NCBI GenBank assembly: GCA_017621815.1
Contig: JAGASK010000015.1
Location: 1-36,504, forward strand
Source: Lachnospiraceae bacterium
GTDB taxonomy: Bacteria > Bacillota > Clostridia > Lachnospirales > Lachnospiraceae
Direction of reading: 5' to 3'
Length of the DNA: 36,504 bases
The notes under the pieces were generated by a model. It was not told where the DNA came from and searched no databases. It worked only from the letters and a program-made list of their open reading frames with translations. The position numbers and the translations under genes were made by a program. Numbering within the stretch: the stretch's first letter is position 1; every line of letters starts with the position of its first letter. Shown piece after piece: positions 23,509-36,299 of this stretch.

Positions 23509-24024
23509 ATGAAAGATGTATTTCTGGTATATGATACAAGCTGTTTTTATGAAATAGTTATTTTAAATTATTTCATGAGTGTTACAGAATGTGAAATGAT
23601 ATTATGTTCTTTGGATGGGAAATCGATACGTACTGCGGAAGGATATTCCGTTAATGTTGACACCGCATTGGAAATGATAAACTTAAATGAAGTCAGAAGT
23701 TTTATTATAGCCGGAGGTGATATATCAGCTGTAAATAATGAAATGGTAAAGGGAATATTGCAGGATTTAAAAAAGAAAAATGTTTTAATTGCGGGGATAT
23801 GTGCCGGCGTTGATTTATTGGAGGAAGCAGGCATATTGAAAGACATAGAGTCAACACATTCTTTGGATGAAGATGTAGTAAATGACCATAAAATTATTAC
23901 TTCCAGAGCAAACGGTTATGTTGATTTTGCCATTGAAGTTGCAAAAGAGTTGGAGCTGTTTGAAGATGAAGCGGATTTAAAAGAGACTGTTGACTTCTGG
24001 AAATATTTTAAAAGAGTTGAGTAG
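23509..24024 (+). CDS. DJ-1/PfpI family protein
   Basis: This 171-residue protein has the DJ-1/PfpI glutamine amidotransferase-like fold: SFIIAGGD (64-71) and the nucleophile elbow IAGICAGVDLLEEAGIL, with Cys98. Members include deglycases, chaperones and proteases; this one's activity is unknown. It is transcribed away from the fucosidase, from a shared AT-rich region. Confidence 0.88.
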   Translation: MKDVFLVYDTSCFYEIVILNYFMSVTECEMILCSLDGKSIRTAEGYSVNVDTALEMINLNEVRSFIIAGGDISAVNNEMVKGILQDLKKKNVLIAGICAGVDLLEEAGILKDIESTHSLDEDVVNDHKIITSRANGYVDFAIEVAKELELFEDEADLKETVDFWKYFKRVE

Positions 24025-24128
24025 AAGGGTTCAAGAAATAGAAAGAGTATTTGAAGTTGTGGGAAGGCATTGATAGAAATTCATGTCAGATGAAGATAGT
24101 TTAGCGGGTGATTAGAGGATTTTCGGAT

Positions 24129-24803
24129 ATGATAAAAGCAGTATTTTTCGACTTGTTTTTTACGTTGATAATTCCTGAATATGAAAAAGAAAATAATGAA
24201 TTTGATATACTAAGCTTATCGGTACATGAATGGGAAAAATATGCGGAAGATGAATTGCTGTATCGGGAAAGGGCATTGGGATTGATTAAATCTGAAATGG
24301 AAATTATAGAGAAAATTGTATCCGGGATCCCATTTCAAATTAGTAATATTCAGAAAGAAGAAGTTTTAGCGGCTCGCAGAAGAAGGATGAAAGCAGCATT
24401 GCAAAATATATCCGGGGAAATATTAAATACCTTAGAGATGTTAAAGGAAAGGAATTTTAAAATTGGCTTGATAAGCAATGCTGATGTCATTGACTGTAAA
24501 TATTGGAGTCAGTCACAGTTGTCTTCCTACTTTGATGATGCTGTTTTCTCTTGTAATGTAGGTTTTTTAAAGCCGGACAAACGTATATATGAGCTTGCAA
24601 TGAAGAAGTTGGAAGTATTTCCGAATGAATGTTTATTCGTGGGAGATGGCGGTTCCAATGAGTTGTATGGGGCGAGATTGACAGGAATGAAAACAGTTTT
24701 TACGGAAGCACTTGAGAATAAAAGTGATGATAAAAGAAATAGCATAATGAAGTATGCGGATTATCATATTAAGCAATTCTCGGAAGTATTAAATTGTTTA
24801 TAA
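24129..24803 (+). CDS. HAD family hydrolase
   Basis: This 224-residue protein is of the haloacid dehalogenase superfamily: motif I FFDLFFTL with nucleophile Asp8, motif II GLISNAD, the Lys in FLKPDKRIYE, and motif IV FVGDGGSNELYGA. The second Asp of DxD is replaced by Phe, as in the dehalogenase/FDLFGTL subgroup, so it may be a phosphatase or a dehalogenase. The frame opens at GTG 24108, but GAGGA at 24115-24119 serves ATG 24129. Confidence 0.9.
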   Translation: MIKAVFFDLFFTLIIPEYEKENNEFDILSLSVHEWEKYAEDELLYRERALGLIKSEMEIIEKIVSGIPFQISNIQKEEVLAARRRRMKAALQNISGEILNTLEMLKERNFKIGLISNADVIDCKYWSQSQLSSYFDDAVFSCNVGFLKPDKRIYELAMKKLEVFPNECLFVGDGGSNELYGARLTGMKTVFTEALENKSDDKRNSIMKYADYHIKQFSEVLNCL

Positions 24804-24957
24804 TTTCTAAAAAGTTAATAAAGCTGATAAAATTGCATGTGTAACTGAAGCTTCAGTGAATTTCTTTTGTTATGATTTAAGCAAATTTAAGCTTGAAAAA
24901 GAGTACGATGGAGCGAAGAATCAAGGTAGGGTTGTTAAAAGGGGGAATAAGAGGAAA

Positions 24958-26031
24958 ATGAAAGAACCTGAAGTTTTATTGGAAAGCTGGTCTCCGGTAT
25001 GTAACATACAGGCATTTGTAGAAGAGAGTGAAACCTGCTGTTATCTTTATCTGTGGTTTAATCCGGGGCAGGAAAATTCCTATATAAAAAGCTGTTGGAT
25101 ATGCAACGTGTCGAAAACTCCGGATAAAATAGAAGTAGATGCCATGAAAGAGGGAATGGCACCTGCCATGCCGAAGGAATTTGTAGGTCATGATAAAGAC
25201 GGAATAAAAATAAGTAAGGATGATTTGTCAATTGTATGGTTTGAGGAAGGAGATGCTGCTGCGCTTCTTGAAAAAGACAAGCTGCTTTGCGTGATTCCAG
25301 GGTGGAGTGATGGCAGAAATTTTAACGGATACTCCAGACATGCTGTAGGAACGGCACCATATGCATGGGAAATGGAAAAGGCAGAGAATGTACTTTTAAA
25401 AAGAGTTAATAAGAGCCGGGATTTTTGGAATTATTTTGAAACGGACTATTGGAAAGACGTACAGGAAATGCATATACGGGCATTGGAAACGTTTTTTGGA
25501 AAATATGATAAATATTATGCAATTGACGGAGGGAATTTTCCGCCTAAGGCTTTGATTACAGGAACGAAGAATAACATAAGCTTCGGAATTACGGCAGGCG
25601 TCAGCTTGATTCCCATGCCGCAGGTTGAGCAGTATTTTCAGGAAGAAGCTGATGATTTCAGACGTATGGAAGTCGGATTTGCAGCATGTGCAGAAAAGCA
25701 GGATATTTGCATAAAAATGTACTCCTTTATGTCAAGCATAGCTTCCCTCCCATGGAATGAGATAAGTTTTCTTTCTCATGGGCATACGATACCATGTGAT
25801 ATAATAGAGGGATTTCAAGCGGTGTGGATGCTGGATTCCCGCCTTTTGCCGCAGATAGAAGCGCCGCAGTATCCTGATTTTATGAGAGATAAAATAAATT
25901 TGTTATGGATAGTTCCTGTTACAGAACAAGAGTATGAAATGATTAAAGAGCTGGGAACGGAAGAAATATTGGAGCAGTTGGAAGAAAATATAAAAGGAAT
26001 TCATATTTTTGACGGAAAAGGCAAGCTGTAA
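24958..26031 (+). CDS. Suppressor of fused (SUFU) domain protein
   Basis: The protein (357 aa from ATG 24958) carries a C-terminal region matching the bacterial SUFU family: FFGKYDKYYAIDGG is part of the N-terminal half, and LPWNEISFLSHGHTIPCD before the GFQAVWML strand is the diagnostic stretch. Bacterial SUFU proteins are often immunity proteins in polymorphic toxin systems; that role is inferred. The site GAGG lies only a few nt from 24958, with GGGGGAA further up. The frame is open back to GTG 24856 and that extension is protein-like, so a longer product cannot be excluded. Confidence 0.82.
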   Translation: MKEPEVLLESWSPVCNIQAFVEESETCCYLYLWFNPGQENSYIKSCWICNVSKTPDKIEVDAMKEGMAPAMPKEFVGHDKDGIKISKDDLSIVWFEEGDAAALLEKDKLLCVIPGWSDGRNFNGYSRHAVGTAPYAWEMEKAENVLLKRVNKSRDFWNYFETDYWKDVQEMHIRALETFFGKYDKYYAIDGGNFPPKALITGTKNNISFGITAGVSLIPMPQVEQYFQEEADDFRRMEVGFAACAEKQDICIKMYSFMSSIASLPWNEISFLSHGHTIPCDIIEGFQAVWMLDSRLLPQIEAPQYPDFMRDKINLLWIVPVTEQEYEMIKELGTEEILEQLEENIKGIHIFDGKGKL

Positions 26032-26077
26032 AACAGAGATATAAGTGACTATGGATGAGCAGGAAGGGAATGAAAAA

Positions 26078-26548
26078 ATGCAGAAACGCCCGCAGAACGG
26101 TATCCGTGATATCGAAGCGGAGGTATATGAACGCAGAAAAACAATCAGGGAACGGATAGCGGAAATTGTTGAGTCCAGGAATCTGACCAGTTATATGAAT
26201 GATACAAAATGGAAGGAATTCCGGGAAGCAATGGAAAACGAAATGCCTTTCAGACCGCCGTATATTTTGAAAACATTGTTTGAGGAAGAGAAGGGTGAAT
26301 ACTTTTCACATTTTACAGATGATGTATGGTATTTGGGAGCATATGGCGCTGAAGAATTTGCAGGCCTGAATTATAAAATCATCGAGTGGGTGAAGGTGCG
26401 CCCCCGCTATTATGAGGTAAAGGGCGGAAGATTGGTGCAGGAAAGGATTCTTCATGATGCAGAGGCAGAATTTGTGGCTGTCTTAAGTAAATATCATATT
26501 CCTTATGAAGTAAAGGACGGGGTTTATGTTATTTATGGCTACCGTTAG
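26078..26548 (+). CDS. DUF6678 family protein
   Basis: This 156-residue protein resembles DUF6678, of unknown function: NDTKWKEFREAM, FRPPYILKTLF, then DDVWYLGAYG and IEWVKVRPRYYE. It has no signal or membrane segment. The start is ATG 26078 after GGAAGGG; earlier in-frame starts (26045 GTG, 26051 ATG) lack a good site. It follows the SUFU gene closely and is probably part of the same unit. Confidence 0.72.
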   Translation: MQKRPQNGIRDIEAEVYERRKTIRERIAEIVESRNLTSYMNDTKWKEFREAMENEMPFRPPYILKTLFEEEKGEYFSHFTDDVWYLGAYGAEEFAGLNYKIIEWVKVRPRYYEVKGGRLVQERILHDAEAEFVAVLSKYHIPYEVKDGVYVIYGYR

Positions 26549-26625
26549 GGACAAGTTATATATTTCGGCTACGGAAAGCCACTGAATTATGGAGTCTGGA
26601 TAAAATGAAGAATCGGAGGGGGAAA

Positions 26626-27153
26626 ATGGAAGAAAAAGCTATAATTATGGAAACGGACAGGTTGATTTTAAGAAGATATACCGAAAGTGATTTACAGGAT
26701 TTATACGAATTTTTATCGGATGCAGAAGTTTTAAAATATGAGCCCTACAGGCCTATGAATATTAAGGAAGTAGAAGGCAATCTGGAATGGAGAATTTCAT
26801 CTAATGAAATGATTGCAGTTGAATTAAAAAGCAATAAAAAACTCATAGGAAATATGTACATAGGCAGGAGGGATTTTGAGGCACTTGAAATCGGGTATGT
26901 ATTTAATAGAAATTATTGGGGAAAAGGGTATGCCAAGGAAAGTTGTAAGGCCTTGGTGGAACAGGCATTTGCCGACGGTATACATAGAATTTTTGCCGAA
27001 TGTGACCCCCAAAATGTAAACTCGTGGAAATTATTGCAGGCATTGGGATTTATACGGGAAGCCCACTTAAAGAAAAATATATACTTCTGGAAGGATAATG
27101 ATAATAAACCTATTTGGAAAGATACATATATTTATGCCAGGCTGAATGAATAG
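26626..27153 (+). CDS. GNAT family N-acetyltransferase (RimJ/RimL type)
   Basis: This 175-residue acetyltransferase of the RimJ/RimL-like group has the N-terminal ETDRLILRRYTESDLQDLYEF, the core EIGYVFNRNYWGKGYAKESC with the acetyl-CoA loop, and AECDPQNVNSWKLLQALGF. The substrate may be a protein N-terminus or a small amine. CGGAGGGGG sits just before ATG 26626; the frame opens 7 codons earlier. Confidence 0.92.
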   Translation: MEEKAIIMETDRLILRRYTESDLQDLYEFLSDAEVLKYEPYRPMNIKEVEGNLEWRISSNEMIAVELKSNKKLIGNMYIGRRDFEALEIGYVFNRNYWGKGYAKESCKALVEQAFADGIHRIFAECDPQNVNSWKLLQALGFIREAHLKKNIYFWKDNDNKPIWKDTYIYARLNE

Positions 27154-27209
27154 GACAGGTTTATTTTGTCAGTCAGACGAAAGTATCGATTTGATTTTGA
27201 GGTAATGAT

Positions 27210-27611
27210 ATGAAAATAACATATAAGGAAATTAAAGAATTTAACAGTAAGGATTTAGAAGAACTTTTTTTATCCGTAGATTGGGAGTCAGGAAAATTCC
27301 CTGAAAAATTACAGAGGGCAATGCAAAATTCTTCCGTGGTTATTTCTGCATGGGACGGTGATAAACTGGTGGGATTGGTTAGGGGACTTGATGATGGAGA
27401 GACGGTGGGATTTATTCATTATCTGTTAGTTAATCCTGATTATCAGGGCTTTCATATCGGTGCCGGACTTATGAACAGAATAATGGAAAAATACAAAAAT
27501 TTACTGCATATAAAGGTCATGCCGTCTGACCCTAAGACAGTGCCTTTTTATGAGAAATTTGGATTATATAAGTATGAAAATTATACTGCAATGGAAAAGA
27601 AAAATATGTAA
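27210..27611 (+). CDS. GNAT family N-acetyltransferase
   Basis: This 133-residue, compact GNAT domain has DKLVGLVRGLDDG, the strand HYLLVNPDYQGFHIGAGLM with the acetyl-CoA loop, and PFYEKFGL. The substrate is unknown. It lies 56 bp after the previous acetyltransferase and may be cotranscribed with it. Confidence 0.9.
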   Translation: MKITYKEIKEFNSKDLEELFLSVDWESGKFPEKLQRAMQNSSVVISAWDGDKLVGLVRGLDDGETVGFIHYLLVNPDYQGFHIGAGLMNRIMEKYKNLLHIKVMPSDPKTVPFYEKFGLYKYENYTAMEKKNM

Positions 27612-27698
27612 TGAAAGTATTTCTGAGGAAAATCTTAAGTATTAGTGTTTTGCATTGTTTTTCAAACATAAATATTGTATGATAAATTCACATAATGC

Positions 27699-27726
27699 AT
27701 TACAGGAACTTATTTTTACTTATAAT
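27699..27726 (+). promoter_or_regulatory. Promoter of the four-repeat secreted protein gene
   Basis: ATTACA (27699-27704) and a perfect TATAAT (27721-27726), 16 bp apart, lie 44 bp before the start codon. A second possible pair, TTGTTT (27654-27659) and TATGAT (27678-27683), lies further up. Confidence 0.6.
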
Positions 27727-27769
27727 ACTTTTGATATACAATAAGGTACAGCTTTTATGGAGGCGAAGA

Positions 27770-28861
27770 ATGAAAAGGTACAGAATTGCAAAAATATTGA
27801 TGGCAGCTTGTCTGGCATTGGGAATGATTGTAATGCCGGCAAGCCGGCTTCAGGTACAGGCGGCAGAGGTTGTAGCAACTGTAGAAGGAACTGTTTTATC
27901 AGGAACAACTTCTGAGGTACTATGCCTTTCCACTAAAGAAGGTAACATGGAGATTAAGCTGGACAGTAATACAGATACCAGTGCCTGCAAGGTACTGCTT
28001 TCGGACCAGAAGGTTAAGGTTTCGGTTTCCCATGGTTCTGACGGATATCTTCATGCAGTTAAAATCACCAGTGATACGCAGATACCTACAGTAACAGTTG
28101 ATTCTTCCACTACTGCTACTGTAAAAGGAAAAATTGACGGAAAGAGTAAAGGTGATGTTATATTTTTAGAAACAGAGCAGGGGGAAATGGAGATTAAGCT
28201 GGACGCTACTACAAATATGAGCGGATGTTCCGTACTCATAGCGGGCAAGAGTTATACGATTACCTGCGCAAGAGGTTCTGATGCTTATATGCATGCAATC
28301 AGTATTGTGGACGGCTCGTCAACATCAACTTCAGCCACTGCTGCCACACCTTCCGCTGCGAATTCAGGTCTTACACCGGCACCCGCCGATTCAGCAAACA
28401 GGACTGCAGCTACGGGAACGGTCAGCGGAAAGGTGACTGACAGCACGAAGGAAAATCTTTTATATTTATCCACGAAAGAGGGGGAAATGCAGTTTGTAAT
28501 TGAAAGCAATACCGACACCAGAAACGGTATGGTTCTCACACCGGATAATAAGCTGACAGTATCTTTTTACCATGGTTCGGACGGATATCTTCATGCAGTT
28601 GATATTGTGGGAAGCAAAGATGATTCTTCTTCAGCAGATATTGACACATCCTCTCCGGCTACAGTAAAGGGAAAAGTGGGAAGCAAATCAAGCGAAAATA
28701 TTCTTTTTCTTGATACGGAACAGGGAATGATGGAGCTTAAGCTTGACGGTGTGAAAAGCGTCAGCAATTGTAAGGTTTTTGTTACCGGCAAAAAGCTTAC
28801 TCTTACCTGTGCGAGAGGCTCAGATGCCTATATGCATGCGCTTGATATTACAGCACAATAA
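27770..28861 (+). CDS. Secreted protein with four repeats of an uncharacterised domain
   Basis: The 363-residue product has a signal peptide (about 1-31, ending VQA) and then four units of about 65 residues (37-101, 117-181, 216-281, 297-361). Units 1 and 3 share STKEG and HGSDGYLHAV. Units 2 and 4 share TEQG, a Cys pair and CARGSDAYMHA. The protein is therefore a duplicated A-B pair, with a Ser/Thr/Ala-rich linker (182-215) between the pairs. Each unit looks like a small all-beta barrel. No anchor motif is visible, so it is probably released or loosely bound. The function is unknown. ATG 27770 follows GGAGG; the frame opens 25 codons earlier. It is monocistronic, with its own promoter and terminator. 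Confidence 0.9.
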   Translation: MKRYRIAKILMAACLALGMIVMPASRLQVQAAEVVATVEGTVLSGTTSEVLCLSTKEGNMEIKLDSNTDTSACKVLLSDQKVKVSVSHGSDGYLHAVKITSDTQIPTVTVDSSTTATVKGKIDGKSKGDVIFLETEQGEMEIKLDATTNMSGCSVLIAGKSYTITCARGSDAYMHAISIVDGSSTSTSATAATPSAANSGLTPAPADSANRTAATGTVSGKVTDSTKENLLYLSTKEGEMQFVIESNTDTRNGMVLTPDNKLTVSFYHGSDGYLHAVDIVGSKDDSSSADIDTSSPATVKGKVGSKSSENILFLDTEQGMMELKLDGVKSVSNCKVFVTGKKLTLTCARGSDAYMHALDITAQ

Positions 28862-28881
28862 CAGATAGGATTACTGAAAGT

Positions 28882-28924
28882 AAAAACCTTCCTGAACTTT
28901 AGGCAAAGTAAAGGAAGGTTTTTT
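28882..28924 (+). terminator. Rho-independent terminator of the four-repeat gene
   Basis: AAAACCTTCCT pairs with AGGAAGGTTTT, and an inner ACTTT/AAAGT pair sits around the loop AGGC. A T-run follows. It ends about 65 bp before the next gene. Confidence 0.92.
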
Positions 28925-28991
28925 GTTCATAACAATAGAAAGTCAGTGCAGAAGGTCTTTTGGCCGGTTAAATGAAAGGGGAATCTGCGAT

Positions 28992-29507
28992 ATGAATAAT
29001 GTGATAGAAATAATTCCTTTAGTGGGAATAAACTGGGAGGGAAAAAGCGTTTGTCTGCAGGCGGCAAGGGAAGAAATTATAAACATATTGGGAACCCCTT
29101 ATGGTGCCTTTGGAAAATCCATATATTATTTTCAAAATGATTTGAGGATAGATTTTGATGGTAATGGAAGGGCAGAGTTTATTGAATTTCTGGGAGGTAT
29201 TGACGGGAAGCTGCAGCCTGAAGTATATGGGGTTAAGGCATTTGAAGCCAGGGCTGATGAATTATTCAATATTCTTAAAATGAATAATAATGGGGAAATT
29301 AATGATAATGAAAATGGGTATAGTTATGGGTTTTTAAATATCAGTGTGGGAATTTTTCGTGAAAGAACTCCTGAGGACGTCAGGGAGATGATAGAGGAGG
29401 CAGAAGAAGAGGGCGAGGAACTGGAACAGGAAGATTTGGAATATGAAAAAAGGAAAGCAGAGCATTGGGCGACTATTGGCATTGGAGTTAAGGGGTATTA
29501 TTTATGA
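28992..29507 (+). CDS. Small acidic protein coupled to the TIR gene
   Basis: The product is 171 residues, soluble and acidic, with a Glu-rich helix near the C-terminus (EEAEEEGEELEQEDLEYEKR). The segment DFDGNGRAEFIE resembles an EF-hand loop except for Ala at position 8, and may be coincidence. I recognise no family; its size and strand-rich N-terminal half resemble immunity-type proteins. ATG 28992 follows AAAGGGGA; the frame opens 23 codons earlier. Its stop overlaps the TIR gene start by 4 nt, so the two are made together and probably work together. Confidence 0.78.
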   Translation: MNNVIEIIPLVGINWEGKSVCLQAAREEIINILGTPYGAFGKSIYYFQNDLRIDFDGNGRAEFIEFLGGIDGKLQPEVYGVKAFEARADELFNILKMNNNGEINDNENGYSYGFLNISVGIFRERTPEDVREMIEEAEEEGEELEQEDLEYEKRKAEHWATIGIGVKGYYL

Positions 29508-32239
29508 TTAATCATTATGATGCTTTTATTTCATACAGACATTTGCCGGAAGATAAAATAGTGGCCATTAAGCTGCAGAATTATCTGGAAAGTTTGAAAA
29601 TTAAAGATATTAAAACAGGTAAAAAACGTCATCTCCGAATTTTCAGGGATCAGAGCGAGCTGTTTACCAGTAATGATTTAGGAGCGAATATACGGGCGGC
29701 TTTGGACAGTTCTGATTTTTTAATCATTCTTTATTCCCTTACTACAAAGGAATCAAAATGGTGTATGGAAGAACTGAATTATTTTCGTTCCTTACATGCA
29801 AATACAAATTGTAAAATCCTCCCTTTGATTATAGAAGGAGAGCCGGATGAAGTGTTTCCGGAGGTTCTGAGACGGGAGGAGCGGCGGGTTACAACTGAAA
29901 ATGGGGAATCACGGGTTATTCAGGTTGAAGTGGAACCTCTTGGAGCAGATATCAGGGAAAGCAGCCTTTCTCTGAAGCTGCGTAAACTGAAAAAAACAGA
30001 GTATATGCGGATTGCAGCTCCTGTGATAGGATGCGGGTTTGATGAGCTTTACCGGCGTAATTTCCGCCGGCGTGTGCGGACAGGTGCACTGATTGCCGGT
30101 TTTGTGCTGCTGGTCTGCTTTCTCGTATTTCTATTAATTTACAGACAGCATAATGCACAGTTAACTGAGGCGGAATCCTACAGCAGCATGGCGGGGCAGC
30201 ATGAAGAGAAGGAGCAGTGGAAAGAGGCCCTGATGTATTATAACGAGGCGGTCAGCCGAAATCCGTCTCTTTTATTTGAAGCTTCTTCTGCCCTGTTTCT
30301 TTTGCAGGAAAAACAGTGGCCGTGCATAACAAAGATTGATAATGACAGTCATATTATGAATGGGGTGCTGGAGCCTTCTGTATTGGAAGCTTATGAAAAA
30401 ATAGCGGAACCTGCAGGCGGCAGTATACGGGCAATGGACAGTACCGTCAGTTATTATCTGGTTGACCTTGGTAATGATGAGAACCAATATGGTGTATACA
30501 ATCTGGAGGGGATTCAAACCGCATTGCTTGAAAATGTGGGAACTGTCATGTATGACAGTTATGAACAGGATTATTGGGCTTTTTACCGTCAGGATGGAAT
30601 GGTTACTCTTTATAATCCCACAGAAAATACCTACTGTGCTTTTATGCCGGAAAATATGACGCAGTATTCCGGTCTGATTCATGTAATACCGGCGGGCAAT
30701 GATATTTGCCTTGTTTTGAATGAAGAAACTGATTCCCTGTCTTCCTATCAGATTGATTTTGAGAAAGGAAGCGGGAAGCTGCTCTTTGAAACACCTCTTG
30801 GCGGAATATTCAAAGAGCGATATGCAGAAGAAATAAAAGAGTATGGCAAAACACTTGCTGCCATATATCTGTTTAAAATAAATCCGGAACAGAATATAGC
30901 GTTAGTCGGGAGAACTATTAGTTCGGGATCCGGCGCATGGAGTGATACTGTCGTTTTACGGCTGTCTGATTTGACACTTATAAAAAATATTTCTGATGAT
31001 AATTATGCCTTAAACCAAATTTCCTTTTGTTCAGGGAACGATTGTTTTGCTCTTGCCTATGGGAATGTTGCTGCAGAGGCGGCAGAGGGTGGTTATGCCG
31101 CTGTGTATGATTTCTCAGGAACGGAAATGTTTTGCACAGATATTAATGGAGGACAGGCATATTATGGAGCTGCGTTCCGCAATGACGGCAGCAGGGAAAT
31201 GGTTGTTTGGAGCCGGAATATGCTTCAGTTCTGGAATTACGAGACCGGAAGCAGGTATGCCGCAGATGTTGTGTCCGGCGATAATGCATTTATCAGTGAG
31301 GTCATTTGTACAAAGGATGCCCATTGTATTGCGGAAATGGGAGGCAGCTTATATTATTATAATATTTTTTCTTTTTCGGCAGAAAGCACTGAAGATGCAT
31401 TGCATCAGAAATATAATTCGGTGGAAGTATTAGAGGCAGTGGAGAATGACCATTATTCCCTGAAAATTGACAGTCAGCTTATTTTGAAAGTGGAAGAGGT
31501 AAGAGATGATGAAGAGAAAGAGGATGTTTCGCTAATCAGGATAATGCTTACTGATTTGGAGGGCAATTTGTATGAGAAACTGGAAATAGAGCATGAACAT
31601 CCTGAACGTTCAATTGTGGAAGGCTGTCCGGTTTTATATACTTATTCGCCGGCTTCCGCAATGCTGTCTGTTTGTATTGATTATCAATATTTTTATAGGA
31701 TTGGAATTGCGGCTGAGAAACCGGGATTTACAGGCTGTGAAATACTGGACGATAAATTTATGTCATATATATGCTGCCCTGTCGAAAGTGGAATTCTGGC
31801 AGTGACAGACTCAGGTATCTATTATTGTGATAATAATTCTGTGTCATGGACATATATCGGCAGTCAGCGGGCTTCTGGAACATTAACAGGATGTTTTACT
31901 AACTGGAACGGAAAATTTTTGCTGTGTATTGATAATCAAAACGGCGGAGTGATGGAATTGTGGGATTTAAAGACGAAAAAATGTATTGCGGACTATGAAT
32001 TGGATAATGACGAGGTGGTGAACGGCATCCGGTTTTTGAGAGATAATGTTCTGGAATATGATACGGACAAGGGAAAGACGCAGATACTGGTTGCAGCAGA
32101 TACGCCCGATATACAGGCAAAAAAGGCATTGAGCATTATTTGCGGCATGACGCTGGAGAATGGGGAAAGGCAATACATCCATGAAGTATTTGATGGAAAT
32201 CTGGGCAGCTGGTCGGAGCTGAAGGTTAGCATGAGGTAG
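29504..32239 (+). CDS. TIR domain-transmembrane-TPR/propeller protein
   Basis: The protein has 911 residues. An N-terminal TIR domain (about 4-120) starts YDAFISYRH and has RIFRDQSEL, an ALDSSDFLIILYS strand and SKWCMEEL. Glu90 matches the catalytic Glu of NAD-hydrolysing TIR domains (WCxxEL). A basic stretch precedes one membrane helix (about 194-213). After it come a TPR-like segment (EQWKEALMYYNEAVSRNPS) and about 600 residues of beta-rich repeats with WD-like turns, such as MELWDLKTKKCI. The TIR faces the cytoplasm and the propeller probably lies outside the cell. Such a layout suggests a sensor coupled to NAD cleavage or scaffold formation. Activity and ligand are inferred. Confidence 0.93.
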   Translation: MINHYDAFISYRHLPEDKIVAIKLQNYLESLKIKDIKTGKKRHLRIFRDQSELFTSNDLGANIRAALDSSDFLIILYSLTTKESKWCMEELNYFRSLHANTNCKILPLIIEGEPDEVFPEVLRREERRVTTENGESRVIQVEVEPLGADIRESSLSLKLRKLKKTEYMRIAAPVIGCGFDELYRRNFRRRVRTGALIAGFVLLVCFLVFLLIYRQHNAQLTEAESYSSMAGQHEEKEQWKEALMYYNEAVSRNPSLLFEASSALFLLQEKQWPCITKIDNDSHIMNGVLEPSVLEAYEKIAEPAGGSIRAMDSTVSYYLVDLGNDENQYGVYNLEGIQTALLENVGTVMYDSYEQDYWAFYRQDGMVTLYNPTENTYCAFMPENMTQYSGLIHVIPAGNDICLVLNEETDSLSSYQIDFEKGSGKLLFETPLGGIFKERYAEEIKEYGKTLAAIYLFKINPEQNIALVGRTISSGSGAWSDTVVLRLSDLTLIKNISDDNYALNQISFCSGNDCFALAYGNVAAEAAEGGYAAVYDFSGTEMFCTDINGGQAYYGAAFRNDGSREMVVWSRNMLQFWNYETGSRYAADVVSGDNAFISEVICTKDAHCIAEMGGSLYYYNIFSFSAESTEDALHQKYNSVEVLEAVENDHYSLKIDSQLILKVEEVRDDEEKEDVSLIRIMLTDLEGNLYEKLEIEHEHPERSIVEGCPVLYTYSPASAMLSVCIDYQYFYRIGIAAEKPGFTGCEILDDKFMSYICCPVESGILAVTDSGIYYCDNNSVSWTYIGSQRASGTLTGCFTNWNGKFLLCIDNQNGGVMELWDLKTKKCIADYELDNDEVVNGIRFLRDNVLEYDTDKGKTQILVAADTPDIQAKKALSIICGMTLENGERQYIHEVFDGNLGSWSELKVSMR

Positions 32240-32244
32240 GTAAA

Positions 32245-32379
32245 ATGACTGAAATGAAAATGGAGGTGCGATGTCCGGCCGGAAAGGTAAGAGAGGCAGT
32301 TCAGATTATTAAGGAGATTCACCCATATGAAGAACCGGTAATTAATGTGATTCCGCTATTAAATGAATTTTTTCAGTAG
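32245..32379 (+). pseudogene. NIF3/CutA-like fragment
   Basis: The 44-residue frame reads VRCPAGKVREAVQIIKEIHP, then YEEPVINVIPL. This matches the conserved HPYEEP region of the CutA-like domain inserted in NIF3/YqfO proteins and of related stand-alone proteins of about 100 residues. Only the C-terminal part is present. The site before ATG 32245 is poor. It starts 6 bp after the TIR gene and probably is a degraded remnant. Confidence 0.6.
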
Positions 32380-32396
32380 CAGAAAGCGTGTGGGGT

Positions 32397-33227
32397 ATGA
32401 AAAGTTTAATAAGATTAACAGACTATAATGAATCGGATATTCTGAATATATTTGAAATTGCTGATGATTTGCAGAAGGGAAAATATGCCGGATGTCTTGA
32501 GAACAAAACAATTGTGATGTTCTTTCCGAATACAAGCATCAGGACAAGGGTTACTTTTGAAAAGGGCATTTATCTGCTCGGAGGGCAGACGATTTTGTTT
32601 CCCCCGGAAGCATTGGATAAAAAAGAAGAAATTCGTGATGTAACAGGGTATTTGAATAACTGGGCAGATGTCATGATAATAAGGCATAAAGATATAAATC
32701 TGCTGGATAAAATAAATGAAAATGCAAAAGTACCTGTTATCAATGCCATGACGGATTGCAATCACCCTTGTGAAATGCTTTCTGATGTATATGCGCTTTC
32801 AAAAATCAGAAATGATTATAGGAAAGACAAATATTTGTTTTGCGGAGCAAAAGGAAACATCGGTTTTGCATGGAAAGAAATTGCAGAAGTAATGGGGCTT
32901 GATTTTACATAGTGCTGTCCTAAAGGTTATGAAATGGAGAACGTGAAAGTAATACATAACCCCAGGCAGGCGGTTATCAGTAAGGATATTATATGTACTG
33001 ATTCACTGGCCGAAAATTTACTGAAAGAATTTAAAGATTATCAGATAACAAAGGAAATCATGGAGCTTGCAAATGAGGGGGCTGTTCTGAATCCCTGTCC
33101 TCCATTTTATCGGAATGAGGAAGTGTCCCCTGATGTGATAGACAGTTCATTTTTTGTGGGATATGAATTTAAGAAACACTTATTGGAAGTTCAGCAGGCT
33201 GTAATTATTTATAGTTTATCGAGCTAA
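32397..33227 (+). pseudogene. Ornithine carbamoyltransferase-like gene broken by an in-frame TAG
   Basis: The two halves are one gene in one frame, interrupted by TAG at 32910-32912 (reads LDFT, stop, CCPKGYEMENVKVIHNP). Carbamoyl-phosphate motif NTSIRTRVTFEKG and the NHPCEML segment are in the first part. The second part has ICTDSL and the C-terminal NPCPPF with SFFVGYEFKKHLLEVQQA. It resembles the aspartate/ornithine carbamoyltransferase superfamily but has SIRTR instead of STRTR and HPCE instead of HPxQ. Without the stop it would be about 276 residues, somewhat short for an ornithine carbamoyltransferase. The binding site before ATG 32397 is weak. A pseudogene is the simplest reading. Confidence 0.85.
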
Positions 33228-33268
33228 AAATTTCAGAAATAAAATCAGAACTAACAGAGGTATAAAAA

Positions 33269-34231
33269 ATGTATGCAGATTTAGTGAGAAATAAGCTGGC
33301 AGAGCAGCAGGATGTCTATCGGTCAGTAAAGGAAAATGATTACCATACGGTATGCTATGACGGATATAAGGATGAAAAATACGGGTTAAAAGACAGAAAT
33401 TATACGAATCGTCTGAGATTATCCTATTATCTTCTTTACGAAAAGATTGATGATGAGGAGGTAACGGTCCATTTATTTGAAGAAGAATTGAAGGACAGAG
33501 AGACTAATGCATTTCAGGGAATAGGGACCACCATTCATATATTGACATGGTTGTTAAAAAGGTATCATGCTGATAAAAAATATGATGAGTTATTCACCCG
33601 GGCAAAGAATGCCAATTTTGACTGTGCCTGTGGATATGATGTTAATTATGGGGCTAATGATGATATTTACAGCAACGACCTTTTGGATTGCATTTATTTA
33701 ACATGGGAAATGGAATATAAGGATGTAATGAGTGAGTTAGTGGATGAATGGAAAAACGGTATAAAGGAATGGGATGATTCCAATAGAAAAGATATGATTA
33801 GATTTAATTCTTTTTTAAACAGGGAATCAGAGAATGAAGCTATTTATCAGGATATTATTTCATCAGTATCTTTAACGGGAAAAGTGTTTGACGTAGTAAG
33901 CGCCTATAGGGAAATTATCCATTATTATATAACATGCGGAAAATATGATTATGCATATAAGTACCTTCAAAAATTGCTTGAAAGCACTGATTTTGAAGGA
34001 GTCAGACATATACGATTGTTTCAATATATATTAGAGGACAGTATGGAGATTATAAGTAATTACCCTGACAAAGCAGATGAATTGTGGTCTTTTGTAAAAC
34101 CTAATCTGCAGCAGCAGAAAAATATGTTTGGCAATTTATTCGTCAAAAGCATTGCTGCTGCCCATAGCGTAAATGACCCTTATGCCTTGGAATTGGAAAA
34201 TAATTATAGGGAATGGAAGGAAAATTTATAA
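33269..34231 (+). CDS. Hypothetical helical protein
   Basis: This 320-residue soluble protein is mainly alpha-helical, with TPR-like stretches (ITCGKYDYAYKYLQKLLEST). The N-terminal half carries Cys and Asp in ANFDCACGYDVNYG. I recognise no family; orphan immunity proteins of this size and look are common in this kind of region, which is only an analogy. It starts after AGAGG. Its stop overlaps the GNAT start (TAATG). Confidence 0.78.
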   Translation: MYADLVRNKLAEQQDVYRSVKENDYHTVCYDGYKDEKYGLKDRNYTNRLRLSYYLLYEKIDDEEVTVHLFEEELKDRETNAFQGIGTTIHILTWLLKRYHADKKYDELFTRAKNANFDCACGYDVNYGANDDIYSNDLLDCIYLTWEMEYKDVMSELVDEWKNGIKEWDDSNRKDMIRFNSFLNRESENEAIYQDIISSVSLTGKVFDVVSAYREIIHYYITCGKYDYAYKYLQKLLESTDFEGVRHIRLFQYILEDSMEIISNYPDKADELWSFVKPNLQQQKNMFGNLFVKSIAAAHSVNDPYALELENNYREWKENL

Positions 34232-34659
34232 TGAATCTTATGTATAAAGAATTTATCAGCGTGGAAGATTATAATGCATTAAGGGAAGCTGTCAAATGGG
34301 GAAAGCTATGCCATGAACAGGCGCAGCAGGGGTTGGAGAATTCGGCGTATGTTATAAGCTGTTACGATAATGGGAAAATTGTCGGTTCAGCCCGGATAAT
34401 ATGGGACAGAGGCTATATTTCATATCTTGCTGATGTTATGGTAATGCCGGAATATCAGGGGAACGGAATTGGACGCCATATGGTTGAACAGGCAATAACG
34501 TTTATAAAGTCTCAATTAAAAGAAGGATGGAAGATAAAAATTGTGTTAGTAGCCGCAAAAGGTAAAGAAACCTTTTATGAGAAGTTTGGATTTGAAGAGA
34601 GGCCAAATGATGAGGCAGGTGCGGGAATGGATTTGTGGCTTGCTTTTTCTGGAAGCTAA
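34231..34659 (+). CDS. GNAT family N-acetyltransferase
   Basis: This 142-residue protein has the acetyl-CoA loop PEYQGNGIGRHMVE, the strand ISYLADVMVMPEY and FYEKFGFEERPNDEAGAGMD near the end. It is a paralogue of the GNAT at 14851-15282. The start ATG 34231 shares a base with the upstream stop and follows GGAAGGAA; the frame opens 6 codons earlier. The substrate is unknown. Confidence 0.92.
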   Translation: MNLMYKEFISVEDYNALREAVKWGKLCHEQAQQGLENSAYVISCYDNGKIVGSARIIWDRGYISYLADVMVMPEYQGNGIGRHMVEQAITFIKSQLKEGWKIKIVLVAAKGKETFYEKFGFEERPNDEAGAGMDLWLAFSGS

Positions 34660-34683
34660 TGGCGCTGAAAGGGAGGGGATTTA

Positions 34684-35100
34684 ATGGATATGGATGCTGA
34701 TAAAGTATGGAAAATAGTTGGATATAATAAAAGGTTTATTAATCCTTTTATTGAACCATGCAGCTATTATATATGGCTGGATGAACATGGTAAGTATGAG
34801 AGCATAGATGAAAGTGTAATAGAATTATACTGGGAAAAATTAAAATACATATCTCAAAATATTGAATTTTTAGTTCAACAGGCATTTAAACCGGTATATT
34901 ATGAATCATATGCGGTTAATCGTAAGGTGGTTTTATCATCAGATGCGATGTGCCAACAATTGTTGGTTGAATCATTTGTTTTAGCCCCTCAATATAAAAC
35001 TATCGGAAGCTGTCTGTCAAATTCAAATTTTATGCCAGGGCATTTTATTGATTGCCAGTGGGATTACGAATGGAATTTGATGTATTCAGATATTTGCTAG
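34684..35100 (+). CDS. Hypothetical small protein
   Basis: This 138-residue soluble protein has an N-terminal VWKIVGYNKRFINPFIEP and a C-terminal aromatic stretch (CQWDYEWNLMYSDIC). No family is recognised. GGGAGGGGAT precedes the start. It is the last gene of the run that begins at 33269, and may be an immunity-type protein. Confidence 0.7.
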   Translation: MDMDADKVWKIVGYNKRFINPFIEPCSYYIWLDEHGKYESIDESVIELYWEKLKYISQNIEFLVQQAFKPVYYESYAVNRKVVLSSDAMCQQLLVESFVLAPQYKTIGSCLSNSNFMPGHFIDCQWDYEWNLMYSDIC

Positions 35101-35226
35101 TTCTAAATTGAGACATGTTTATATTTTGAATTTTTATAATTTGTTTTTAAAAATAAAAAATTAGAAAATAATTATTGAATAAACGATAATTTTATGATAT
35201 GCTACAGTCAAAGCAAAAGATTTCTG

Positions 35227-35361
35227 TAAGCGAAAGCTTATTTTGCGGCGATGCCGCATCTGACAGGACATTCTGTTCTAATCTTGTTGAATATTATCAG
35301 TTCAATGAGAGTCTCTTTTTGAAATCCTGCTTTTAAAAACCCAATTAATAAAAAAGCAGGA
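35227..35361 (+). other. Cluster of hairpins upstream of the Rpn gene
   Basis: The 329-nt gap 35101-35429 holds no gene, but four stem-loops follow one another. TAAGC-GAAA-GCTTA (35227-35240) has a GNRA tetraloop. TGCGGC-GAT-GCCGCA (35244-35258) is next. ACAG/CTGT (35263-35276) has a 6-nt loop. TCCTGCTTTT pairs with AAAAGCAGGA (35325-35334 with 35352-35361). The arrangement suggests a structured 5' leader of the nuclease mRNA or a small RNA. The 35101-35226 part is very AT-rich and otherwise empty. Confidence 0.55.
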
Positions 35362-35429
35362 GATGAGAGAAGGAATTGGTTATTGTTTCAATGAATCCAT
35401 ACATCTTCCTGCACGAAGGAGGAAAAAAT

Positions 35430-36299
35430 ATGGACAACAAAACAGTAACAAAACTGAAAGATCTGAATCTGGTGGACAGATTCCTTTTTGACGAAACCAT
35501 GGAAAACAGGGAAGCCTATGAAGCGGCAGTGAGTATTCTTTTGGAAAATGAAGTTGAATTGCTTGACAGAGCTGAGACAGAAAAAGAATTTCGGATATCT
35601 CCGAAGCTTCGGGAAATCAGGTTAGATGTGGTCAGCATGGACAGCCAAAAGCGAATTTATTATACTGAAATGCAGAAGAAAAATACCGGAAATCTCAAAA
35701 AGAGAAGCCGGTATTATCAGGCACATATAGATGTATCACTGTTGGAGCCGGGAAGTATGAACTTCAACCTTCTGAACGACAGTTGCTTTATCTTAATAGC
35801 ACCTTTTGATATTTTTGAAAGAGGACTGTGCCGTTATACTTTTGAGGGAACCTGTAGGGAATGTCCGGATTTAAAGTTGGGAGATGGCTCCATAAAGGTT
35901 TTCATTAACACGAAGGGAAGGAACAGGGAAGAATTCTCTGAAGAATTTCTTGATTTTATGGATTATGTCACAAATTCTTCTGCGAAAGTAGCGGGCAGGA
36001 CAAAGAGTGAAAAGATTAAGCTGATTCACAGACAGGTACAGAAAATTAAAGAGTCGGAAAAGATGGGGGTGAAGTATATGCAGAGATGGGAAGAACTGGC
36101 AGAAGCCAAGGAAGAAGGCGGGGAACTAATGCTGATAAAGCAGGTATGTAAAAAACTCGGCAAGGGAAAGAGTATGGAAGAAATCGCAGAAGCCCTTGAA
36201 GAAGATATGGAGAAAATCGAAAAAATCTGCGAAGCAGCAGAAGGATTTGCCCCTGATTATAATTGTGAAGAGATTTATGAAAAGCTATATGAAGAATAA
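35430..36299 (+). CDS. Rpn family recombination-promoting nuclease / putative transposase
   Basis: The 289-residue protein has the PD-(D/E)XK-type nuclease core of the Rpn/PDDEXK-2 family: the N-terminal KDLNLVDRFLFDETMEN, then IRLDVVSMD and YYTEMQKK, giving Asp66, Glu80 and Gln82. The helical C-terminal tail is rich in Glu/Lys and is typical. Relatives form multicopy families in Lachnospiraceae. E. coli RpnA promotes RecA-independent recombination; whether this one is mobile is unknown. ATG 35430 follows AAGGAGGAAA; the frame opens 18 codons earlier. Confidence 0.9.
   Translation: MDNKTVTKLKDLNLVDRFLFDETMENREAYEAAVSILLENEVELLDRAETEKEFRISPKLREIRLDVVSMDSQKRIYYTEMQKKNTGNLKKRSRYYQAHIDVSLLEPGSMNFNLLNDSCFILIAPFDIFERGLCRYTFEGTCRECPDLKLGDGSIKVFINTKGRNREEFSEEFLDFMDYVTNSSAKVAGRTKSEKIKLIHRQVQKIKESEKMGVKYMQRWEELAEAKEEGGELMLIKQVCKKLGKGKSMEEIAEALEEDMEKIEKICEAAEGFAPDYNCEEIYEKLYEE

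What the first reader, a model, noticed from the sequence alone, without database searches (positions are those of the whole stretch)
28992..32239. Two-gene TIR sensor unit: small acidic partner plus membrane TIR-propeller protein
A 911-residue protein joins a cytoplasmic TIR domain with an apparent catalytic Glu90 (WCMEEL), one membrane helix, a TPR-like segment and a long beta-propeller-type extracellular part. A 171-residue acidic protein is coupled to it by a 4-nt overlap. Bacterial TIR domains often cleave NAD in antiphage defence, but a transmembrane TIR with an external propeller suggests sensing from outside. The partner family is unrecognised. The layout (overlap, motifs, membrane helix) is seen directly; activity and sensing are inferred.
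Basis: partly seen in the sequence, partly recalled or inferred. Interest (0 to 1): 0.7.

Follow-up and report, generated by a model that had tools for sequence, protein, structure and literature searches.

The report
Membrane TIR-propeller protein, unrelated small neighbour
The large gene is a real membrane-anchored TIR protein of a family common in related Clostridia, but the small gene in front of it is probably a chance neighbour; elsewhere the recurring neighbour of such TIR genes is a nucleotide-cleaving type (DHH) enzyme.

Summary
The layout is confirmed: ORFs of 171 aa (28992-29507) and 911 aa (29504-32239) share an ATGA overlap. The large protein has a TIR domain (Pfam TIR_2, 4.7e-10), one membrane helix with positive-inside charge, a TPR and a WD40-type repeat region. 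Glu90 is invariant in 45 of 45 aligned members.

The 'two-gene unit' is not supported as a conserved system. In the flanks held, none of 18 other places with a small-protein relative has a TIR gene, and none of 61 other TIR-family places has a small-protein relative. The small protein has a confident model (pLDDT 95), only weakly like BLIP/BamE proteins. Relatives' neighbours at 5 of 7 places scanned include SUKH, Imm1, DMP19 or SF0329 genes; I read it as an immunity-type passenger.

The recurring TIR neighbour is a ~500-aa DHH-DHHA1 protein: within 4.1 kb at 20 of 53 family places, 6 of 9 congeneric places and four genomes outside the family. A channel-like gene recurs at four. Listings of nine paper searches showed neither link. 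The window copy's branch lacks a DHH neighbour.

Best reading: a membrane TIR sensor that probably cleaves NAD; activity, ligand and antiphage role are untested.

The parts
28885..28925 (+). terminator-like stem and T run after the preceding gene
   Evidence: by eye; not listed by the scan
28992..29507 (+). small acidic protein, 171 aa, alpha/beta; N-terminal half distantly DUF7738/BamE-like; probably an immunity-type passenger
   Evidence: relatives; model pLDDT 95; Foldseek weak; DUF7738 and BamE hits of relatives L113 and L114
29504..32239 (+). 911-aa TIR - membrane helix - TPR - WD40-type repeat protein
29513..29893 (+). TIR domain core, about residues 4-130
   Evidence: Pfam TIR_2 residues 8-116 and TIR 28-129
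29771..29773 (+). codon of Glu90, candidate NADase residue, invariant in 45 of 45 aligned members
30083..30139 (+). membrane helix, residues 194-212
   Evidence: hydropathy 3.06, K/R 6 before and 1 after
30170..30268 (+). TPR, residues 223-255
30371..32236 (+). WD40-type propeller-like repeat region, about residues 290-911 (bounds approximate)
   Evidence: single-sequence model of the whole protein uninformative, pLDDT 38

Best explanation
The 911-aa protein is a single-pass membrane sensor. Its TPR and WD40-type outer part receives a cue; this clusters the inner TIR domains, which then cleave NAD through Glu90 into a nucleotide signal or simply deplete NAD. The 171-aa protein is not part of the mechanism in general; it is an immunity-type gene that lies in front of the TIR gene in this genome and presumably shares its transcript. 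Shown: layout, domains, topology signals, Glu conservation, absence of the small gene around the other TIR places examined. Inferred: enzymatic activity, ligand sensing, passenger status and immunity role of the small gene. The family's linkage to a DHH-DHHA1 protein and, more rarely, to a channel-like gene favours nucleotide signalling over plain scaffolding, although the window copy has neither beside it.
For: Glu90, Trp86, Asp49, Phe47 invariant in 45 of 45 rows. Positive-inside bias at the single helix. WD40 and TPR profiles. A full-length relative, L144 in a congener (27% over 929 alignment columns), has a different upstream gene, a CAP12-PCTIR protein. No small-protein relative around 61 other TIR-family places, no TIR in 23 loci of the small family. 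At 7 of the 18 small-family places I scanned neighbours chosen by eye; 5 gave SUKH (L100, exactly at cut-off; L153), Imm1, DMP19 and DUF6756 (L103) or SF0329 (L106, L104); L102 and L115 gave nothing. DHH linkage: 20 of 53 places, 6 of 9 congeneric places; 25 of 43 TIR genomes have the DHH against 26 of 256 others, Fisher 1.4e-11; outside the family 9 of 10 DHH genomes carry the TIR, p 1.7e-10.
Against: The 4-nt overlap with its own ribosome site is what a purposeful pair would also show. No activity could be tested. The outer part has 2.58% Cys, against pooled 1.19% in 23 exported-like and 1.61% in 178 cytosolic-like proteins of the same genome. The window genome's DHH is a short form (350 aa, DHHA1 just under its cut-off) on another contig, so the DHH link does not apply locally. 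Genomes in the association tests are related: the nine outside the family that have both genes belong to two families and three genera, so the p values overstate independence. The direct profile comparison of the window clade with the DHH-linked clade aligned only the TPR region.
Confidence: 0.55

Rival explanations
1. The small protein is a lineage-specific partner: an inhibitor or adaptor recruited to restrain or tune this TIR protein, as the overlap suggests.
For: 4-nt ATGA overlap. Weak structural likeness to beta-lactamase-inhibitor-type proteins, which bind other proteins (3gmx probability 0.75 but E 1.1; BLIP-I chains 0.38 and 0.44).
Against: No such pairing around 61 other TIR-family places or at 18 other places of the small family; the relatives stand in unrelated contexts. 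The nearest TIR relatives L144 and L041 have other upstream genes.
Confidence: 0.15
2. The TIR domain is a non-enzymatic scaffold that only gathers other proteins, as in animal adaptors.
For: Many TIR domains act by assembly (recalled). No activity was shown here.
Against: Trp86 and Glu90 are invariant in 45 of 45 rows; recurrent linkage to a DHH protein and channel-like genes.
Confidence: 0.15
3. The propeller faces the cytosol, so the cue is internal (for instance a phage product) and the helix is an anchor or oligomerisation element.
For: Cys-rich repeat part, 18 of 699 residues, equalled by 1 of 23 exported-like but 14.6% of 178 cytosolic-like proteins. WD40 domains are mostly intracellular (recalled).
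Against: Six K/R before and one after a single strongly hydrophobic helix, so TIR and propeller should lie on opposite sides.
Confidence: 0.12

Closest known systems
TIR domain proteins (Pfam TIR_2 PF13676, ThsB_TIR PF08937)
   Same: Domain scores above the curated cut-offs, conserved W-x3-E with invariant Glu.
   Different: Membrane helix and TPR/WD40 outer part; of six plasmid matches four are annotated only as 'toll/interleukin-1 receptor domain-containing protein', two not at all.
Thoeris ThsB
   Same: ThsB_TIR model hit 24.5 bits.
   Different: No ThsA-like gene among the ten window neighbours scanned; PADLOC ThsB hits weak (best 0.0022).
Retron-TIR (NF042941)
   Same: TIR part resembles, 25.9 bits.
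   Different: Cut-off is 600 bits; only the TIR end of the model matches.
TIR plus repeat receptors of plants and bacteria (TIR-NBD-WD40/TPR; PMC9153377, passages seen)
   Same: N-terminal TIR and C-terminal repeats.
   Different: A membrane helix and no nucleotide-binding domain match.
DUF7738 / BamE / BLIP-type proteins, for the small protein
   Same: Relative L113 (two copies in one ORF) hits DUF7738 1.6e-8 and BamE 5.6e-6; L114 hits DUF7738 3e-4, under the cut-off; weak Foldseek hits to DUF4309 (YjgB) and BLIP-like proteins.
   Different: The window protein itself hits none of them; no Foldseek match at E 0.001 or better, best 0.035 (TagH domain, 46 columns).

Membership tests
TIR domain superfamily | sequence model above curated cut-off | tested here: met
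   TIR_2 40.5 bits against 28
TIR NADase | conserved catalytic Glu | tested here: met
   Glu90 aligned with the Glu of the plant L6 stretch, invariant in 45 of 45; that this Glu is catalytic in L6 is recalled
TIR NADase | Glu in a correctly folded pocket | tested here: inconclusive
   single-sequence model pLDDT 38
TIR NADase | NAD cleavage | not testable with these tools
   bench assay needed
Thoeris | ThsA-type effector next to ThsB | tested here: not met
   none among ten neighbours in 23509-36299 scanned with Pfam; ORFs at 26605, 27210 and 34213 (acetyltransferase-like by eye) and genes before 23509 were not scanned
Retron-TIR | NF042941 cut-off | tested here: not met
   25.9 bits against 600
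Conserved two-gene unit of small protein and TIR protein | co-occurrence in relatives | tested here: not met
   0 of 18 other small-family places, 0 of 61 other TIR-family places, within the flanks held
TIR-DHH gene pair of Clostridia | DHH-DHHA1 ~500 aa gene within about 4 kb | tested here: not met
   own genome's only match at 1e-60 is a 350-aa form on contig C17; the window protein's sister L041 lacks it too
Immunity-type small proteins (for the 171-aa protein) | linkage to toxin or immunity genes | tested here: inconclusive
   neighbours scanned at 7 of 18 places: SUKH, Imm1 or DMP19 at three and SF0329 at two; SUFU and DUF6678 upstream in the window; no cognate toxin identified; which families count as immunity is recalled apart from Imm1's own Pfam name

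The most novel reading that the evidence does not exclude
Clostridia carry a membrane-anchored, receptor-like TIR system: an outer WD40/TPR sensor drives an inner TIR that makes an NAD-derived nucleotide signal, a linked DHH-DHHA1 phosphodiesterase erases or tunes that signal, and in some loci a RyR-domain-type ion channel reads it, a bacterial analogue of receptor, cADPR and ryanodine receptor. The window protein belongs to a branch without the DHH neighbour.
Probability: 0.22. Interest if true: 0.82.

Novelty: new variant of a known kind. Interest (0 to 1): 0.48.

Why it matters
Known bacterial TIR defence proteins mostly sense events inside the cell (recalled). A widespread transmembrane TIR family with an outer propeller would mean TIR signalling from the surface in gut-type bacteria. 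The DHH linkage names a testable eraser, and the channel-like gene a testable reader, of a TIR signal. For the finding itself, the value is partly negative: the small acidic gene should not be pursued first as the partner.

Tried and rejected
Small gene as conserved partner: rejected. EF-hand/calmodulin reading of the small protein (phmmer best 0.0061; profile search: calmodulin 0.054 and above, a PPR protein 0.014): rejected, since the DFDGNG stretch (residues 54-59) lies between two strands, not two helices, of the confident model. Phage or plasmid carriage: no match of the TIR protein in phages, six distant plasmid matches, none for the small protein in plasmids, none confirmed in viral contigs for either alignment; the small protein was not searched in the phage collection. 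Structure of the TIR protein from one sequence: useless, pLDDT 38. Searching the small-protein sequence alone in genome contigs found nothing; the six-member alignment found 17. The second structural aligner was unavailable.

Rows left out before counts: A2 holds 44 of the 52 other places; dropped were a 268-aa truncated copy (L041), a 1437-aa fusion (L089), a split copy (L080), a contig-cut copy (L070), a 396-aa piece (L062), two long copies of 1253 and 1118 aa (L052, L054) and one place (G204) that matched only the propeller. L112 was left out of A3 because its frame holds a stop near the 5' end. In one search the 23 small-family loci are 18 distinct places, since L092-L096 are the same places as L100, L104, L110, L114, L115; two pairs (L105/L107, L111/L112) look like near-copies. 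A further 36-residue fragment with stops in G054 (L010) is not counted. Several small-family loci are cut by contig ends (L101, L102, L105-L108, L110, L112, L115), and some TIR loci too (for example L075, 128 nt left upstream).

Full report
Observation. The window encodes, on the + strand, a 171-aa protein (28992-29507) and a 911-aa protein (29504-32239) that overlap by ATGA. A longer reading of the first ORF from TTG 28923 exists, but relatives and the AAAGGGG site support ATG 28992.

The large protein. Pfam places TIR over its cut-offs, with weak TPR and weak propeller matches. In 299 genomes of the same family, 43 have a match, at 53 places including the window; one of the 53 (G204) matches only the propeller part. 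I aligned the window protein with 44 of the 52 others (A2). Thirteen columns are invariant, among them Phe47, Asp49, Trp86 and Glu90; Glu90 lies in the Glu column of the plant L6 stretch in the phmmer alignment. Most matches cover TIR and helix only, and the outer part diverges fast. As a family profile the outer part matches WD40 proteins (2ymu 2.2e-48, Apaf-1 1.1e-32). A profile of the window protein with three relatives still finds 2ymu at 1.4e-12 and a designed TPR protein at 5.9e-8. A direct profile comparison of that clade with six DHH-linked relatives aligned 94 columns, essentially the TPR region (probability 92), so the propeller in the window's own clade is the less certain half. The nearest full-length relative, in a congener, is 27% identical over 929 columns. 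In a tree of 45 TIR domains the window protein pairs with L041 (99/94; the bootstrap had not settled).

Topology. A single helix at 194-212 has six K/R before and one after, i.e. TIR inside, repeats outside. Of the 45 rows, 6 gave no helix above my threshold. Against an exported location: 2.58% Cys in the outer part, the highest of the 39 rows with a helix (range 0.40-2.58). In 23 exported-like proteins called from 23 stretches of the same genome the pooled value is 1.19%; one of 23 is as high, and it is the channel-like protein of L097. Of 178 cytosolic-like proteins 14.6% are as high. These classes are crude (hydropathy only) and the exported-like set includes doubtful ones.

The small protein. 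Five other genomes of 299 carry a full relative, 2 of 37 in the genus including the window, and 17 named loci were found in genome contigs, five of which are the same places as. Its closest relatives are 60% identical. Six-frame profile searches found no TIR in the 23 loci of this family, and no small-family member in 62 stretches other than the window (60 around 61 TIR-family places, two of the own genome); the same TIR profile found 63 segments in the TIR stretches as positive control. The neighbourhoods share nothing constant. I scanned neighbours, chosen by eye, at 7 of 18 places: SUKH at L100 (25.4 bits, exactly at cut-off) and L153; Imm1, DMP19 and DUF6756 at L103; SF0329 at L106 and L104; nothing for the genes scanned at L102 and L115. 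In the window SUFU and DUF6678 genes end 3.0 and 2.4 kb upstream. The model is confident (pLDDT 95, pTM 0.89). Foldseek gives no match at E 0.001 or better; the likeliest are a TagH domain (46 columns), DUF4309 YjgB (TM 0.44 and 0.49), an antifungal effector (0.41 and 0.44) and BLIP-type inhibitors. A relative with two copies hits DUF7738 and BamE, a single-copy one DUF7738 under its cut-off. I read it as an immunity-type or protein-binding passenger.

The recurring neighbour. Clustering the genes within three positions of 52 TIR genes (plus the two neighbours of one other TIR gene of the own genome, added by hand), the largest neighbour family is a ~500-aa DHH-DHHA1 protein with an unrecognised C-terminal part, at 20 loci; next are ABC-type 7, AraC-type 6 and a channel-like group 6 (Pfam for DHH; labels ABC and AraC by eye). 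Thirteen lie upstream on the same strand: twelve with gaps of -35 to +78 nt and one with a small gene between. Five lie downstream in the opposite direction, two downstream on the same strand. In the window's genus the order is reversed: six of nine TIR genes have the DHH gene 15-24 nt downstream (DHH and DHHA1 confirmed by Pfam for L147, the others by the same N-terminal motif by eye). Presence is associated: 25 of 43 TIR genomes have the DHH against 26 of 256 others. In a class-wide sample of 245 genomes, 26 have the TIR, 16 the DHH, 15 both; outside the family (nine members, from the order of the listings) 19, 10 and 9 of 236, with adjacency in four (G569, G390, G417, G563). Those nine belong to two families. 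On the TIR tree the DHH label (19 of the 20 places; L062 was not in A2) needs 10 changes against 14.4 in shuffles (8 of 500 as low), of which starred branches force 3. The window's sister L041 also lacks it; the window genome has a 350-aa DHH protein on another contig.

A channel-like gene is next to the TIR gene at four places of this family: L044 (Ion_trans_2 and RyR over cut-off), L073 (RyR below cut-off), L082 (no Pfam hit) and L080 (same cluster, not scanned); a doubtful fifth is L084. A similar gene (no Pfam hit) lies next to a different TIR gene of the window's own genome, L097. So the RyR domain is certain at one place only. A relative of the L073 channel is in 5 of 299 genomes, in three of them (the query's own included) at a TIR gene of this family.

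Literature. Nine searches listed no paper on a TIR-DHH or TIR-RyR pair, judged by titles and starts of abstracts; one search listed 10 of 317. Two listed papers that hold both 'TIR domain' and 'DHH' (PMC7824862, PMC2743648) were not read. I read passages of one review (PMC9153377), which names TIR proteins with transmembrane regions and TIR-NBD-WD40/TPR architectures. Only open-licence papers are held, so absence from print is not shown; a 2015 survey of nucleotide-centred conflict systems that I recall could not be read.

Verdict. A real membrane TIR protein of a widespread family; the proposed partner is most likely incidental. New variant of a known kind, with a stronger lead, the DHH linkage, outside the window. 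On rechecking I lowered the probability of the most novel case from 0.25 to 0.22, because the RyR domain passes its cut-off at one place only.

Noticed in passing
L045 6487-8004, L147 9023-10531 and 24 further TIR loci: A ~500-aa DHH-DHHA1 gene is the recurring neighbour of TIR-membrane-propeller genes, in three different gene orders.
   Followed up: partly
L044 6328-7962, L073 8801-10660, L080 5763-7823, L082 2087-3925, L097 8922-10898 (own genome): Related channel-like membrane proteins directly beside TIR genes; RyR domain over its cut-off in L044 only.
   Followed up: partly
window 32388-33227: An ornithine/aspartate carbamoyltransferase homologue is split in two ORFs (N-terminal Pfam half in 32388-32912, C-terminal half in 32934-33227); looks decayed.
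   Followed up: no
window 24856-26548: SUFU and DUF6678 genes, of types often seen among immunity genes (recalled), upstream of the pair.
   Followed up: no
L098 9604-13107 (own genome contig C4): The own genome's best TIR_2 hit falls in the C-terminal part of a 1167-aa protein whose start looks helicase-like by eye, beside a second such gene.
   Followed up: no
L081 5172-8831, also L083, L085, L087: TIR family members with a long part before the helix; in L081 a protein kinase domain precedes TIR, and vWA-like and phosphatase-like genes (by eye) lie upstream.
   Followed up: no
L116 9920-12784 and L061 7983-12848: The own genome's short DHH gene sits before a glutaminyl-tRNA synthetase-like gene (label by eye); in another genome a TIR gene of this family sits at the corresponding place.
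   Followed up: no
L144 3261-6651: The window protein's nearest full-length relative is preceded by a CAP12/Pycsar-type TIR gene 169 nt upstream.
   Followed up: no
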